Source: Nitrosospira sp. (GTDB lineage Bacteria > Pseudomonadota > Gammaproteobacteria > Burkholderiales > Nitrosomonadaceae). Taken from it: DNA of 64,000 nt. Shown here piece after piece: positions 1-4,958 of the stretch. The notes under the pieces are model-generated. The model searched no databases, had not been told where the DNA came from, and saw only the letters and a list, made by a program, of their open reading frames with translations. A program made the translations under genes and the position numbers. Location of the stretch: contig JAPLQS010000059.1 of the NCBI GenBank assembly GCA_026399575.1, positions 1 to 64,000 of the forward strand. Reading direction: 5' to 3'. How positions within the stretch are numbered: the stretch's first letter is position 1; every line of letters starts with the position of its first letter.

Positions 1-685
1 GTCGGTGCACCGGGCAAGGCAGGGGTTCGTGAAGGCGAGAACCGCTCAGTCGAACCAAATACGGGGATTGCTCTCAGAGTTCGGGATTGTGATACCACAG
101 GGGATCCACTCGATCATGAAGCAGATGCCGGAGATTCTGGAAGATGGTGAGAACAGGTTGCCTGGCATGATGCGAAACCTGCTCGAACGGCTGACGGAGA
201 ATCTGAAGGAGATGGATCGTCAGGTGGATGAACTGGAAAAGCAGATCGGGCTGTGGCATCGGGAGAACGAGGCGAGTCGGAGGTTGGCTGAGATAGCGGG
301 CATTGGACCGATCACGGCCAGCGCGATTGTGGCGACCGTGGGTAAGGCCAGGGAATTCAAGAATGGTCGACAGCTAGCTGCATGGATGGGATTGGTGCCC
401 CGGCAGAATTCCAGTGGTGGTAAGCAGAATTTGCTGGGTATCAGCAAGCGCGGTGATACCTACCTCAGAACATTGCTGATCCACGGAGCAAGAGCCGTGA
501 TCCGATTTGCCGAGAACAAGGCAGAGCCAGAGAGCTGGTTGAGAAAGCTGATGGTCAGGCGCAACAAGAACGTAGCGGCGGTTGCACTGGCAAACAAGAA
601 TGCCCGGATCGTGTGGGCGCTTTTGGCCAACGATCGGATATTCCGCTCCAATTACACCCCGGCAGCTGTCGCTGTCGGAATGTAA
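1..685 (+). CDS. IS110-family (IS1111-group) transposase, C-terminal part
   Basis: The reading frame is open to the left window edge, so only the C-terminal part (about 227 residues) is visible. It matches the Transposase_20 region of IS110-family recombinases: an alpha-helical coiled stretch (about residues 55-95) leads into a helix-hairpin-helix-like segment with IAGIGPITASAIVA, then WMGLVPRQNSSGGK and ISKRGDTYLRTLLIHGA, which carries the conserved serine region. The wording of these motifs is closest to the IS1111 subgroup. The N-terminal RuvC-like DEDD domain must lie outside the window. The GTG at base 5 is an internal codon, not the real start. Members of this family move with the help of a structured RNA from the non-coding end of the element and make no long terminal inverted repeats. 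Confidence 0.88.
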   Translation, partial: SVHRARQGFVKARTAQSNQIRGLLSEFGIVIPQGIHSIMKQMPEILEDGENRLPGMMRNLLERLTENLKEMDRQVDELEKQIGLWHRENEASRRLAEIAGIGPITASAIVATVGKAREFKNGRQLAAWMGLVPRQNSSGGKQNLLGISKRGDTYLRTLLIHGARAVIRFAENKAEPESWLRKLMVRRNKNVAAVALANKNARIVWALLANDRIFRSNYTPAAVAVGM

Positions 686-1090
686 TTGAAGCGGTAGAGT
701 AAAACCTGAGTGACAACGAGTTAAGGAGAAATTCCACCGATTGCACAGGCAATCATGAAGTGATGGCAAGACTGGTCAGACCGTGAGTGGCAGAACCTGT
801 ACGTAACACAGCACATAAAGTGCGCCCCCGTGATCAGGAGCTACTCAGCGGATTCCATCAGGGATAGAGGCGATAGCCTCACCAAAAATCCGGATGTATG
901 GCTGCAATCTTTACCTTCGACCCATCATCGATTGAAAGCTTGGCAAAAGTGGGCGTCCATGTATGTTACATGAACGGGGAGAGACAAATCGGAAGATGGG
1001 GTAATTGTGGTTGACGTTTGGGGTGTTTCAATTTTGGAGTGCCTGAAAAATATGAACTTAGAAATAAAAAACTAAGTTATACGACATTCT
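686..1090 (+). mobile_element. Non-coding right end of the IS1111-group element, possible guide-RNA region
   Basis: About 300-400 bases follow the transposase without any credible ORF. IS1111-group elements carry their long non-coding segment downstream of the transposase, where the guide (bridge/seek) RNA is made; the length and position here fit that layout. The exact right boundary cannot be set because the left end is outside the window and these elements lack clear terminal repeats. It probably lies between about 1000 and 1090, before a half attC-like sequence. Confidence 0.45.
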
Positions 1091-1094
1091 GCAC

Positions 1095-1134
1095 CAGATT
1101 ATGCGTCAATTTTGACGTCTAATTTACGTTAGAT
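1095..1134 (+). other. Possible right half of an attC site
   Basis: A small inverted repeat (GCGTCAA / TTGACG) followed by TCTAATTTACGTTAGAT resembles the L-prime/R-prime half of an integron attC site. The last seven bases (1128-1134, GTTAGAT) fit the GTTRRRY core exactly. No matching R-double-prime half (RYYYAAC) is found to the left, which would be expected if the IS1111-group element had split the site. This is an inference from pattern only. Confidence 0.35.
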
Positions 1135-1310: not shown

Positions 1311-1493
1311 ATGTATTTTCAAATTTATCAGGAAGGTCAAGGTTTAATATCTATCCAATGGCGGTGGAGGCTGAGGGCGGCTAATCACGAAATCATCGCA
1401 AGTGGCGAGGGCTACAATAACAAGCAAGATTGTATTCACGCAGTCAATCTCCTTAAAAATACAAATGCGGCTACTCCGGTCAAAGAAATCTAA
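1311..1493 (+). CDS. DUF1508 (YegP-like) small protein, cassette-borne
   Basis: The 60-residue product carries one copy of the DUF1508/YegP repeat: an N-terminal FQIYQ strand, then WRWRLRAANHEIIASGEGYN and a cysteine-containing helix (KQDCIHAVNLLK). DUF1508 proteins usually hold one or two such repeats and have no firmly known biochemical role. A strong AGGAG lies seven bases before the ATG. The stop codon is embedded in the ATCTAAC core that begins the next attC-like site, the usual arrangement of an integron gene cassette. Confidence 0.75.
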   Translation: MYFQIYQEGQGLISIQWRWRLRAANHEIIASGEGYNNKQDCIHAVNLLKNTNAATPVKEI

Positions 1494-1577
1494 CCCGGCG
1501 CTCAACTCGGACGGCGAGGAAGCGGAGTTTTTCCGTCCCTCCCTTTGTCCGCGCCGCCGGTTAGCTCTACGTTAGAA
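1488..1577 (+). other. attC-like cassette recombination site 1
   Basis: The site begins with ATCTAAC (1488-1494), fitting RYYYAAC, and ends with GTTAGAA (1571-1577). Between them CTCAACTCGGACGG and CCGCCGGTTAGCTCTAC take the places of the L-double-prime and L-prime boxes and can form an imperfect stem (CTAACC-GGCG with CGCC-GGTTAG). The spacing matches well-known attC sites such as that of aadA1. The last base of the terminal core departs from GTTRRRY. Confidence 0.7.
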
Positions 1578-1591
1578 CCCGCAGGAGAGGT

Positions 1592-2107
1592 ATGCCGAAC
1601 ATTCCCGTCCCAGATTTTGATGATCCGAAGGAGGTTTACGCCTTTTTCGGCTTGGCGATGTTCAACGCTAACCTCGTCGAGACCAGCCTCATTAATCTGG
1701 CAGTGGTGTTACACCTCGATAAAGTCGGAGTAATTACCAGGGAGGTCTTCGAGGCTACCTTCGGAGACATGGAATCAAAGACGCTAGGGCAGCTCCTGAA
1801 AGCAACGCGTACATTGGCATCTGTTCCGTCTGAGCTTGAGCCAGCTCTTAGGGAAACCTTGGCAAAGAGGAACCATCTCGCACACAACTTCTTTCGAGAG
1901 AATGCCGAAGAGATTATTCATCCTTCCGGTAAGCGGGAAATGATCGAGGAGCTGTATTCTATGATTGAGCTGTTTAAGCGCGCTGATGAGCTAGTCACTC
2001 CCGTATACATGTCTCTCTGGGAGAAATATGGGGTCACCGAAAGTTTCATACAGGCTGAGTTGGCACAAGCCTATTCAGAAAACGAGTCCAAGCGTGGCGG
2101 GCCCTAA
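1592..2107 (+). CDS. HEPN-like hypothetical protein in a gene cassette
   Basis: The 171-residue product is predicted almost all alpha-helical, soluble and without a signal peptide. Around residues 90-101 it has LAKRNHLAHNFF; Arg93 and His98 form an R-x4-H motif as found in HEPN-domain ribonucleases and nucleotidyltransferase partners. The surrounding charged and hydrophobic pattern also fits such families. Many HEPN proteins act as toxins or in phage defence, but others are inactive, so a toxin role is only a possibility. A good ribosome binding site (GGAGAGGT) precedes the ATG. The gene lies alone between two attC-like sites, with its stop in the core of the second. Confidence 0.62.
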   Translation: MPNIPVPDFDDPKEVYAFFGLAMFNANLVETSLINLAVVLHLDKVGVITREVFEATFGDMESKTLGQLLKATRTLASVPSELEPALRETLAKRNHLAHNFFRENAEEIIHPSGKREMIEELYSMIELFKRADELVTPVYMSLWEKYGVTESFIQAELAQAYSENESKRGGP

Positions 2108-2165
2108 CCATTCGCTGCAGGCGCGACGGCCCTGATGGGCCGCGGCCTGAGCTAAAACGTTGGAC
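2102..2165 (+). other. attC-like cassette recombination site 2
   Basis: This 64-base site begins CCCTAACCATTCG and ends with GTTGGAC (2159-2165), a perfect GTTRRRY core. The interior holds a strong inverted repeat (GCGACGGCCC / GGGCCGCGGCC), as in attC hairpins. The opening TAACnATTCGnT is typical of 59-base elements. It overlaps the stop codon of the upstream cassette gene. Confidence 0.75.
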
Positions 2166-2190
2166 ATTTCGTTAGCAACGGGGAAAGTAT

Positions 2191-2898: not shown

Positions 2899-4219
2899 CA
2901 GTAGTGTCCGGCAATTTAGTTGAATAGATTCAGTTGGTTGTTGTTTTGCTGTGTGGTCATTTGCATCTCCGTGTTTTTAAGTAATTGATCGAGCGTCGTT
3001 TTCTCGAAAAGAGTCAGGCTCAGGATTTGTAGAATTGTGTAAAGCGAAACCTCGGTATTGAGCCGCTTTTTCACGATGGCGACCAAGACGTAGACCGTGA
3101 TGGCGATCCAGATTTGTGTCTTGACTGCATTCTCGGTAGTGCCGTAGAACCGCTTGATACGAAGATGCTGTTTGATCCACTTGAAGAATAGCTCGACCTG
3201 CCAGCGGCAACGATAAAGCTGAGCGATGGTTAGCGCAGGCAAGTCGAAGTTGTTGGTTAGAAATACCAGCTCCTTGTCGTGTTCGGTATCGTAGAACTTG
3301 ATGCGTCGCAGGTGCTGCGGGTAATCCTTGCTGGCCTTGGGAGCGGTCAACGCAATGGTCTGATCGCAGCGCAGTCCCGTGGATTTGTCTACGGAACGAG
3401 AGTAGACGCGGCGAAAGAGCAGATTGGATTTGGCTCGCGTTACAAAAAACGCCTGCGCTTGATGCATGACGAACCAGCGAGCGAAGTCGGTGAAGCCACG
3501 ATCCATGATGTAAAAGCTGCCGGCTTCGGGTACCAAGATATCGAGCACATTGACCTCGTGCATCTTGCCGTCGCTGATGTGGATGAAGGTTGGAATATTG
3601 CCGCGCAGGTCGAGCAGCGTATGCATCTTGACGGCAGCTTTGGTCTGACGAAAGCGCGCCCAGGGGAAGACGCTCAAGCACAGGTCGATGGTCGTGGTAT
3701 CGAGTGCGTAGACCGTCTGTTCCAGCTCCACCGCAAAGTGGTCGCTGGCGTAAAGTGTTCTGGCAGTCTGGATTAGGCTCATCGCGAAATCCGCATAGAT
3801 GCGACAGTCTCGCTGCTCGTTGGCATCGGCCAGGGTGCTCTTGGCGATGTTGCCGCGTATACCCAAGTGATAGAGCTTGGCTTGGTGAGCGCGCAGACAG
3901 GTTTCGATGTCGCGCAGACTTTCGCGGTAAGTTAGTTGTGCGAAGGCCATGCAGAGAAATTGATCGAGATGTGAAAAAATCTTGGTGGGATATTTGGAAG
4001 GGTAACGCTGCACACAGCGACGGAATGTGTGAAGGGGTAAATACTCCATGAGTTGTGCGAACACCAATTTGCCTGAATGCATAATGAGAAACCGCGCGGG
4101 GAAACCCCCAGTTTCGCAAAAAATTCACATTCAAATCGGTGACACCCCTAAACACACTATTTCCTATTCCAGATCAACCTGTTATATAACCATCTGGGCA
4201 AAATTGCCGGACACTACTG
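2899..4219 (-). mobile_element. Complete IS4-family insertion sequence
   Basis: Perfect 19-bp terminal inverted repeats (CAGTAGTGTCCGGCAATTT at 2899-2917 and its complement at 4201-4219) bound a 1321-bp element with one transposase gene. No flanking direct repeat is obvious. The element sits at the 3' end of the DUF1294 gene on the same strand. Confidence 0.92.
2916..4082 (-). CDS. IS4-family transposase with DUF4372 N-terminal domain
   Basis: The 388-residue protein starts with a DUF4372-type helical domain (about residues 5-75, MEYLPLHTFRRCVQRYPSKY). It continues with the IS4 DDE catalytic core: first Asp in YALDTTTIDLCLSVFPWA, second in FYIMDRGFTDFARWF, and the glutamate in the YREK signature YRCRWQVELFFKWIKQHL. 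All catalytic residues are present and the length is normal, so the enzyme is probably active. The stop codon overlaps the terminal inverted repeat. The start ATG at 4082 has only a weak ribosome binding site. Confidence 0.92.
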   Translation of the reverse strand: MHSGKLVFAQLMEYLPLHTFRRCVQRYPSKYPTKIFSHLDQFLCMAFAQLTYRESLRDIETCLRAHQAKLYHLGIRGNIAKSTLADANEQRDCRIYADFAMSLIQTARTLYASDHFAVELEQTVYALDTTTIDLCLSVFPWARFRQTKAAVKMHTLLDLRGNIPTFIHISDGKMHEVNVLDILVPEAGSFYIMDRGFTDFARWFVMHQAQAFFVTRAKSNLLFRRVYSRSVDKSTGLRCDQTIALTAPKASKDYPQHLRRIKFYDTEHDKELVFLTNNFDLPALTIAQLYRCRWQVELFFKWIKQHLRIKRFYGTTENAVKTQIWIAITVYVLVAIVKKRLNTEVSLYTILQILSLTLFEKTTLDQLLKNTEMQMTTQQNNNQLNLFN

Positions 4220-4754
4220 AAACTGTTATCCAGAACTTGGACTGAAAAGCCGCTTTCTTCGATTTGTGGTGAAACATCCTCTGTGCAACGAGTGCGCCAG
4301 GCCAGCCGCCAACTAAGCCAAGTAGATGCAACCTATCCTCGCTCGTTCTCCAACGATTTTGGAAAGCAGCAGCTTTATCGAAGGCGTAGACCATGAAGGT
4401 AGTAGTGCTTGCCAAGGCGTAAAGAAGGGGCACGACAAATGACAGCTTGCCAATAACAGATATGATTACGACAAAGCAGCAAAAAAGTATCGCAAAGATT
4501 GCCCCAACGGATTTGTTGCCTGCAGATATAGATGAAGGGGTTGGATCGCCAACAAACTTGACGTTCTCCGCCTGAAGACGGTGCTGCTGGTCTGTTGTCA
4601 ATTCATATGTGATTAAGTCGCTTTCGGTAGGACGGCGACGGTTATTTGAGAAAGCCTTAATATGAACAAATGCCTTATCGCCACCGCCATTTGGCGTGAC
4701 AAATCCGAAGCCTTTGTCATCATTCCAATTTATGATTCGTCCTTGGTAGCGCAT
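4182..4754 (-). CDS. Cold-shock domain plus DUF1294 membrane protein, 3' end replaced by IS sequence
   Basis: From MRYQGR the product has an OB-fold cold-shock domain (about residues 1-67, with NWNDDKGFGFVTP and AFVHIKAF, the RNP1 and RNP2 motifs). Two hydrophobic segments (about 78-125) and the DUF1294 motif (YAFDKAAAFQNRWRTSEDRL, then LGLVGGWPGALVAQ) follow. The last 11-12 residues, after FWITV, are read from the inverted repeat of the IS4 element, so the native C-terminus has been replaced. Joining the flanks suggests that only a few native residues were lost, and the protein may still work. The ATG at 4754 fits the domain start better than the TTG at 4775. A c-di-GMP-I riboswitch and promoter lie upstream. 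The molecular role of this family is unknown; RNA binding at the membrane is an inference from its domains. Confidence 0.85.
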   Translation of the reverse strand: MRYQGRIINWNDDKGFGFVTPNGGGDKAFVHIKAFSNNRRRPTESDLITYELTTDQQHRLQAENVKFVGDPTPSSISAGNKSVGAIFAILFCCFVVIISVIGKLSFVVPLLYALASTTTFMVYAFDKAAAFQNRWRTSEDRLHLLGLVGGWPGALVAQRMFHHKSKKAAFQSKFWITVSVVSGNFAQMVI

Positions 4755-4875
4755 ATTCTGATTAATGTAGGGCAAAGCTTCTCAGGAACTGACAGGCGCG
4801 CCTTTTCACGGCGTTACCGTACTCGATGTCTGGGGCTGCAGGAGGGGCAAGCGATTCTGCACATGGACGAATATC

Positions 4876-4957
4876 TACATGGCAGTCCCGCTACCCTAGT
4901 TTCCCTTAGGCCGGTGACTTTGCGCCCTTACCTTTCAGTAAGTTTGCCGAGTATGTA
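4876..4957 (-). promoter_or_regulatory. c-di-GMP-I (GEMM-I) riboswitch aptamer, copy 1
   Basis: On the minus strand the RNA reads CUCGGCAAAC, a GAAA-capped P2 hairpin (CUUAC-UGAAAG-GUAAG), GGCGCAAAGUCACCGGCCU and AGGGUAGCGGGACUGCC. These are the conserved landmarks of the GEMM-I class: GGCAAAC, the CGCAAAG turn, the tetraloop receptor with GGCCU, and GGUAGCGGG. The GGCA/UGCC ends pair as P1. It lies about 120 bases before the CSD-DUF1294 start, so it should make that gene respond to c-di-GMP. Confidence 0.88.
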
Positions 4958-4958
4958 C

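What the first reader, a model, noticed from the sequence alone, without database searches (positions are those of the whole stretch)
1..1134. IS1111-group element abutting the cassette array, possibly attC-targeting with guide RNA
Known: an IS1111-attC group inserts specifically into attC sites, and IS110/IS1111 elements select targets through a guide RNA from their non-coding end. Seen: an IS1111-like transposase, 300-400 non-coding bases after it, then a lone right-half attC-like sequence (GTTAGAT core, no left half) next to a cassette run. Inferred: the element entered an attC site and carries an RNA programmed for attC.
Basis: partly seen in the sequence, partly recalled or inferred. Interest (0 to 1): 0.6.

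Follow-up and report, generated by a model that had tools for sequence, protein, structure and literature searches.

The report
RNA-guided insertion element beside integron site

Summary
The element is real: the 3' two thirds of an IS1111-family insertion sequence, cut at its left by the contig start. Its right end is base 963, not about 1130: 25 relatives diverge there, after a 12-bp subterminal repeat plus GTA. The "lone right-half attC" (1126-1134) is the end of an attI (1074-1134), homologous to attI sites beside intI in Nitrosomonas. An attI has no left half to find.

The non-coding end encodes a structured RNA with strong covariation and two guide segments. In 47 related elements these segments match each element's own flanks (z = 15.7 and 12.6; 0 of 20,000 permutations). 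The window's guides (GUAACAC, 803-809; GCCCCCGUG, 824-832) spell GCCCCCG|TGTTAC. That is a conserved leader hairpin of Nitrosomonadaceae (TGTATTTGTAGCC-CCCCG|TGTTACTTGAACGGGG), found intact in 20 of 85 genomes and often about 110-120 bp upstream of attI. The window's right flank is its right half.

A sister species carries the same element (143 bp, 100% identical) with the same right flank, plus two left junctions ending in the leader's left half. So IS1111-type and RNA-guided: supported. attC-targeting: not supported. The RNA mechanism is inferred from base pairing and published homologues; nothing was assayed. The element's own left junction lies outside the contig.

The parts
2..685 (+). 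IS1111-family transposase, C-terminal 227 aa (N-terminal DEDD part lost at the contig start)
   Evidence: PF02371 E 2e-27; 88% aa identity to L003 transposase which has PF01548 and PF02371; contig begins at window base 1
686..948 (+). 3' non-coding region that encodes the guide (seek/bridge) RNA
   Evidence: No long conserved ORF; conserved with relatives at RNA level
737..911 (+). Conserved structured RNA (predicted long seekRNA)
   Evidence: 18-sequence alignment A1; 16 pairs with compensatory changes; 98.5% cells paired vs 26-39% for slid controls
784..847 (+). Guide-bearing stem-loop, predicted core of the short seekRNA
   Evidence: Helices 4-6, 12 of 15 pairs with changes on both sides
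802..809 (+). Guide T (CGUAACAC): complement of target top strand G|TGTTAC (7 nt matched, 803-809)
824..832 (+). Guide B (GCCCCCGUG): pairs with bottom strand of GCCCCCG|TG
   Evidence: left flanks of L002, L005, L224
940..963 (+). TTGGCA -35 box plus half of the TATAAT -10 box; a promoter would form when the ends join as ...GTA|TAATGG in a circle
   Evidence: Sequence and left-end consensus TAATGGA; inference from published circle-junction promoters (PMC11187229)
949..960 (+). Right subterminal inverted repeat GTGGGCGTCCAT (partner ATGGACGCCCAC at left ends of relatives)
961..963 (+). 3-bp right extension GTA; right end of the IS
   Evidence: Divergence of about 25 relatives here
964..979 (+). 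Right half of the target: TGTTACATGAACGGGG (3' part of the leader hairpin with Shine-Dalgarno-like GGGG)
   Evidence: blastn to intI-adjacent DNA, L182 E 6e-7; homologous leader-attI units
1488..1578 (+). attC of the first cassette (ATCTAAC ... GTTAGAA)
   Evidence: DNA fold z -2.4; sequence boxes
2100..2179 (+). Probable attC of the second cassette
   Evidence: DNA fold of 2100-2175, z -3.2

Best explanation
Window 1-963 is the right part of an IS1111-family insertion sequence whose 3' non-coding end encodes a two-guide RNA. One guide segment pairs with the top strand and the other with the bottom strand of a conserved leader hairpin, GCCCCCG|TGTTAC. That hairpin is a dispersed Nitrosomonadaceae module that lies just upstream of attI sites, attC-like sites or single accessory genes. 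The element inserted into the 5' side of the hairpin loop in one orientation, about 165 bp before an attI recombination point and its cassette array, so its closeness to the integron comes from the leader and not from attC recognition. Shown: ends, subterminal repeats, RNA structure, guide/flank covariation, repeated occupation of the same target. Inferred: that the RNA binds the transposase and guides insertion, that the promoter forms in the circle, and that insertion uncouples promoter from attI.
For: Right end defined by relatives. 7-bp left and 3-bp right extensions around a 12-bp repeat. Guide segments covary with each element's own flanks: own 7.38 vs permuted 5.21 nt (z 15.7) and 6.66 vs 5.08 nt (z 12.6), 0/20,000 permutations, constant positions. 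RNA covariation 74 double-change cells vs 22.6 shuffled. Intact targets in 20/85 Nitrosomonas genomes, 0 reversed controls. Same IS end (100% over 143 bp) in sister species G001 with the same right flank in another context. G001 left junctions ...TTTATAGCCCCCCG| and ...TGTATTTGTAGCC..CCTCG|. L002 and L005 show both flanks. A congener (G008) with other guides sits at a correspondingly different target.
Against: The left flank of the window's own copy is unread. Guide T matches only 6 nt of the right flank plus one core base; the next base is a mismatch (guide predicts TGTTACG, flank TGTTACA). Some relatives (L003 left, L004, L013 right, L078) match their flanks only partly. No RNA-seq or transposition data exist for this element.
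Confidence: 0.92

Rival explanations
1. The element is an IS1111-attC group member that entered an attC and carries an attC-programmed RNA.
For: IS1111 family membership; a cassette array with attC-like hairpins lies downstream.
Against: The IS ends 165 bp before the GTTAGAT core; that core is attI; guides do not match attC or attI; other insertions of the same or closely related elements are in the leader, two of them (L214, L005) in front of a gene with no attI or attC recognised.
Confidence: 0.03
2. The element recognises the leader mainly as a folded (single-stranded or cruciform) hairpin through the protein, with the guide match secondary.
For: The target is a small palindrome with a conserved stem in 34 copies; published IS1111 targets include folded attC and REP sites (PMC11187229).
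Against: Closest relatives with about 88% identical transposases use non-palindromic sites that match their own guides.
Confidence: 0.1
3. The shared right flank is part of the IS (a longer right end in this sublineage) and not target.
For: Window, L002, L005, L201 and L214 all continue with TGTTAC.
Against: The same sequence is found uninterrupted, without any IS, in 20 of 85 genomes, and joins exactly to the left flanks of L002, L005 and L224.
Confidence: 0.02

Closest known systems
IS1111-family elements with seekRNA (ISEc11, ISPa11, ISKpn4, ISPst6; Siddiquee et al. 2024, PMC11187229)
   Same: Subterminal inverted repeat, 7/3-bp extensions, 3' non-coding guide RNA, top-strand guide before bottom-strand guide, fixed orientation, promoter expected at the circle junction.
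   Different: Target is a leader hairpin upstream of attI or accessory genes; RNA not shown experimentally.
IS1111-attC group (ISKpn4, ISPst6, ISPa21, ISPa25; Tetu & Holmes 2008, Post & Hall 2009)
   Same: Same family, same mechanism class, physically near an integron.
   Different: Guides and flanks are not attC; insertion is upstream of attI. Transposase clade placement against this group was not tested because its sequences were not at hand.
IS110-family bridge RNA systems (IS621; Durrant et al. 2024, PMC11208160)
   Same: DEDD transposase and a bispecific non-coding RNA with loops that pair with the target.
   Different: RNA lies 3' of the gene, long subterminal repeats, reversed guide order; the donor-binding loop was not mapped here.
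Integron attI/cassette platforms of Nitrosomonas
   Same: attI 1074-1134 is homologous to attI beside intI in Nitrosomonas.
   Different: No intI in this MAG nor near any of the 16 leader sites examined; a leader hairpin takes the place that intI has in complete integrons.

Membership tests
IS1111 family | DEDD N-terminal domain (PF01548) and C-terminal PF02371 | tested here: met
   C-terminal domain in the window; full domain pair in the 88%-identical relative L003; the window's own N-terminus is off the contig
IS1111 family | Subterminal inverted repeats of 11-13 bp with 7-bp left and 3-bp right extensions | tested here: met
   GTGGGCGTCCAT+GTA at 949-963; TAATGGA+ATGGACGCCCAC in relatives and in sister species G001
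IS1111 family | Long non-coding region downstream of the transposase with guide RNA, top-strand guide 5' of bottom-strand guide | tested here: met
IS1111-attC group | Insertion into the end of an attC | tested here: not met
   Right flank is the leader hairpin; nearest recombination site is an attI 110 bp away
IS1111-attC group | Guide RNA complementary to attC | tested here: not met
   attC/attI cores give only 4-6-nt chance matches; the leader gives 7 and 8 nt at the guide positions
IS1111-attC group | Transposase in the attC-targeting clade | not tested
   ISKpn4/ISPst6/ISPa25 protein sequences were not obtained
attI (integron platform) | Single simple recombination site ending in GTTRRRY, homologous to sites upstream of intI | tested here: met
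Complete integron | intI next to attI | tested here: not met
   No match above the TIGR02249 cut-off in the MAG; the MAG is about 95% complete and the contig is cut, so the gene could be unassembled

The most novel reading that the evidence does not exclude
A lineage of RNA-guided insertion sequences in Nitrosomonadaceae is programmed to a portable promoter/leader-hairpin module that feeds attI sites, cassettes and defence-type genes. The element would thereby parasitise, and by inserting between promoter and attI reversibly silence or rewire, an integrase-free cassette-expression platform that has not been described.
Probability: 0.3. Interest if true: 0.65.

Novelty: new member of a known kind. 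Interest (0 to 1): 0.45.

Why it matters
It shows natural reprogramming of IS1111 guide RNAs on a large scale: 47 elements, whose guides as a set fit their own targets, including congeners with different targets. It adds a target type, a leader hairpin upstream of attI, to the short list of known IS1111 targets (attC, REP, transposon ends). It warns that closeness to a cassette array is not evidence of attC targeting. It also exposes a conserved leader-attI module without integrase that integron specialists could test.

Tried and rejected
attC insertion (right end and guides contradict it). Lone half-attC (it is attI). intI upstream of the site: the two integrase-like hits in the MAG score far below the TIGR02249 cut-off, and the one in the window reads as XerC/D-like; none within 3 kb of the 16 leader sites in L132-L147 that were examined. 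Leader as a known Rfam family: no hit. Leader or target copies elsewhere in the own MAG: none. Own MAG for the left half of the IS: none. A home-made attC scanner was too strict for these attCs. One regex script timed out. The third putative attC (2625-2770) does not fold better than chance. ISKpn4 and ISPst6 sequences were sought for a clade test, but no usable record was found.

Full report
What is there. Window base 1 is the first base of contig C17 of a 2.09-Mb, 93-contig genome, so the element is cut at its left. Bases 2-685 encode the C-terminal 227 residues of an IS110/IS1111 transposase (PF02371), 88% identical over the whole fragment to a full-length relative in L003 that has both the DEDD domain PF01548 and PF02371. 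Comparison with relatives from one genome-contig scan shows that DNA similarity stops at 963-966 in nearly all of them. The ends have the IS1111 layout: flank | TAATGGA + ATGGACGCCCAC ... GTGGGCGTCCAT + GTA | flank, i.e. a 12-bp subterminal repeat with 7- and 3-bp extensions, as described for this family (PMC11187229). The IS therefore ends at 963. It does not abut the cassette array.

What the 'half attC' is. Window 1074-1134 matches DNA lying 59 bp upstream of, and divergent from, an intI start in L182 (blastn E 6e-7; intI TIGR02249 458 bits) and similar places in L183, L186, L181, L184 and L192. The alignment runs through AGTTATACGACATT...TTACGTTAGAT. It is an attI. An attI is a single simple site, so the missing left half needs no explanation. 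The cassette run after it is real for at least one attC (1488-1578) and probably a second (2100-2179); a third did not fold better than chance. The MAG holds no intI above the family cut-off.

What the IS inserted into. The flank after 963 is TGTTACATGAACGGGG. The relatives L002 (Nitrosomonas sp. Nm33) and L005 (N. oligotropha Nm75) have TGTTACTTGAACGRG on the right and ...TGTATTTGTRGCC(T)CCCCCG on the left. Joining the flanks gives TGTATTTGTAGCC-CCCCG|TGTTACTTGAACGGGG. The uninterrupted sequence exists in 20 of 85 genomes of the Nitrosomonas genus, with no reversed-pattern control hits. It has a stem (28-32 of 34 copies paired at the five inner positions) whose 3' arm contains a Shine-Dalgarno-like GGGG. 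In 11 of 32 distinct copies an attI module follows 65-122 bp after the motif start, as in the window. In others, attC-like hairpins (L098, L201) or genes follow directly, including a CAP12/Pycsar TIR effector, GGDEF and DUF262-like genes. I call it a leader because it sits downstream of promoter-like sequence and upstream of genes or attI; that role is inference.

How it chooses the site. The 3' non-coding region (686-948) aligns across 18 elements as a conserved RNA with two hypervariable segments. A consensus structure has 47 pairs, 16 with compensatory change, 98.5% of cells paired against 26-39% in slid controls, and 74 double-change cells against 22.6 in shuffles. The two variable segments flank a hairpin. 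For 47 elements with distinct targets I measured the longest match between the RNA region and (T) the reverse complement of the element's own right flank, and (B) its own left flank. Own means are 7.38 and 6.66 nt against 5.21 and 5.08 for permuted flanks (z 15.7 and 12.6; 0 of 20,000 permutations), and the true matches fall at constant positions, T before B, the order published for IS1111 seekRNAs (PMC11187229). Window guides: T = CGUAACAC (802-809, matching over 803-809) and B = GCCCCCGUG (824-832), which together spell GCCCCCG|TGTTAC. attI and attC core sequences give only 4-6-nt chance matches.

Independent insertions. A sister species of the same genus (G001) has a contig that starts with the last 143 bp of this IS, 100% identical, followed by TGTTACATGAACGGGGG in a different context, in front of an ORF whose sequence looks RelA/SpoT-like by eye. 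Two other G001 contigs end about 150 bp into IS left ends (99% identical to each other) whose left flanks are ...CATTTATAGCCCCCCG and ...TATGTATTTGTAGCCTCCATATCCTCG: left halves of the leader, as the guides predict. A third Nitrosomonas genome (L201) has the same guides and the same right flank. In contrast, congener G008 has an IS 73% identical with guides GGTCCAC/CTATAGTG at flanks CTACAG| and |TGGACCCC, and L003, with an 88% identical transposase, uses yet another site. This is natural reprogramming.

Mechanism. Shown by sequence: ends, RNA structure, guide/target covariation, repeated use of one target in one orientation. Inferred from the homologous systems (PMC11187229, PMC11208160): the RNA binds the transposase, pairs with both strands of the target, and directs insertion from a circle. 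Joining ...TTGGCA-16 bp-TA | TAAT... would create a promoter with a perfect TATAAT. Also inferred: in the window the insertion separates the upstream promoter and left stem from the Shine-Dalgarno-like arm, attI and cassettes.

Limits. The left junction of this copy is off the contig. Guide T has a mismatch at the seventh flank base. A few relatives fit their flanks only partly. The transposase was not placed in a tree with the IS1111-attC group because those sequences were not obtained. The host is placed in the same family as Nitrosomonas by the relatives search (L002's genome and the same-family genome G209 carry the same element at 86% identity); its genus is not named by the tools.

Verdict. 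An ordinary mechanism for its family, aimed at a target I found no description of in the papers searched.

Noticed in passing
window 4878-4958 (-): c-di-GMP-I riboswitch (RF01051, 68.5 bits, gathering 35) just upstream of a minus-strand cold-shock/DUF1294-like ORF (4182-4775), in a window with GGDEF/EAL genes.
   Followed up: no
window about 2905-4218: An IS4-type element (transposase 2916-4082 minus; apparent terminal repeats AGTGTCCGGCAATTT / AAATTGCCGGACACT) that seems to cut into the end of the cold-shock/DUF1294-like gene.
   Followed up: no
L096-L131, L148-L172 (Nitrosomonas loci): A conserved promoter/leader-hairpin module (TGTATTTGTAGCC-CCCCGTGTTACTTGAACGGGG) precedes attI sites without intI, attC-like hairpins, or single accessory/defence-type genes; its stem shows compensatory changes (e.g. 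L153, L163) and its 3' arm holds a Shine-Dalgarno-like GGGG.
   Followed up: partly
L053, L055, L056, L060, L061 (Acidovorax temperans): Related IS1111 elements sit in small palindromes of the form GAAC|NGGTTC or GAAC|NNGTTC, another hairpin-like target.
   Followed up: no
L038, L041, L044, L047, L051, L059, L068 (mostly Variovorax): A set of related elements repeatedly uses a target GTATG|CGTCCGGC or GTAAG|CGTCCGGY; nature of that target not examined.
   Followed up: no
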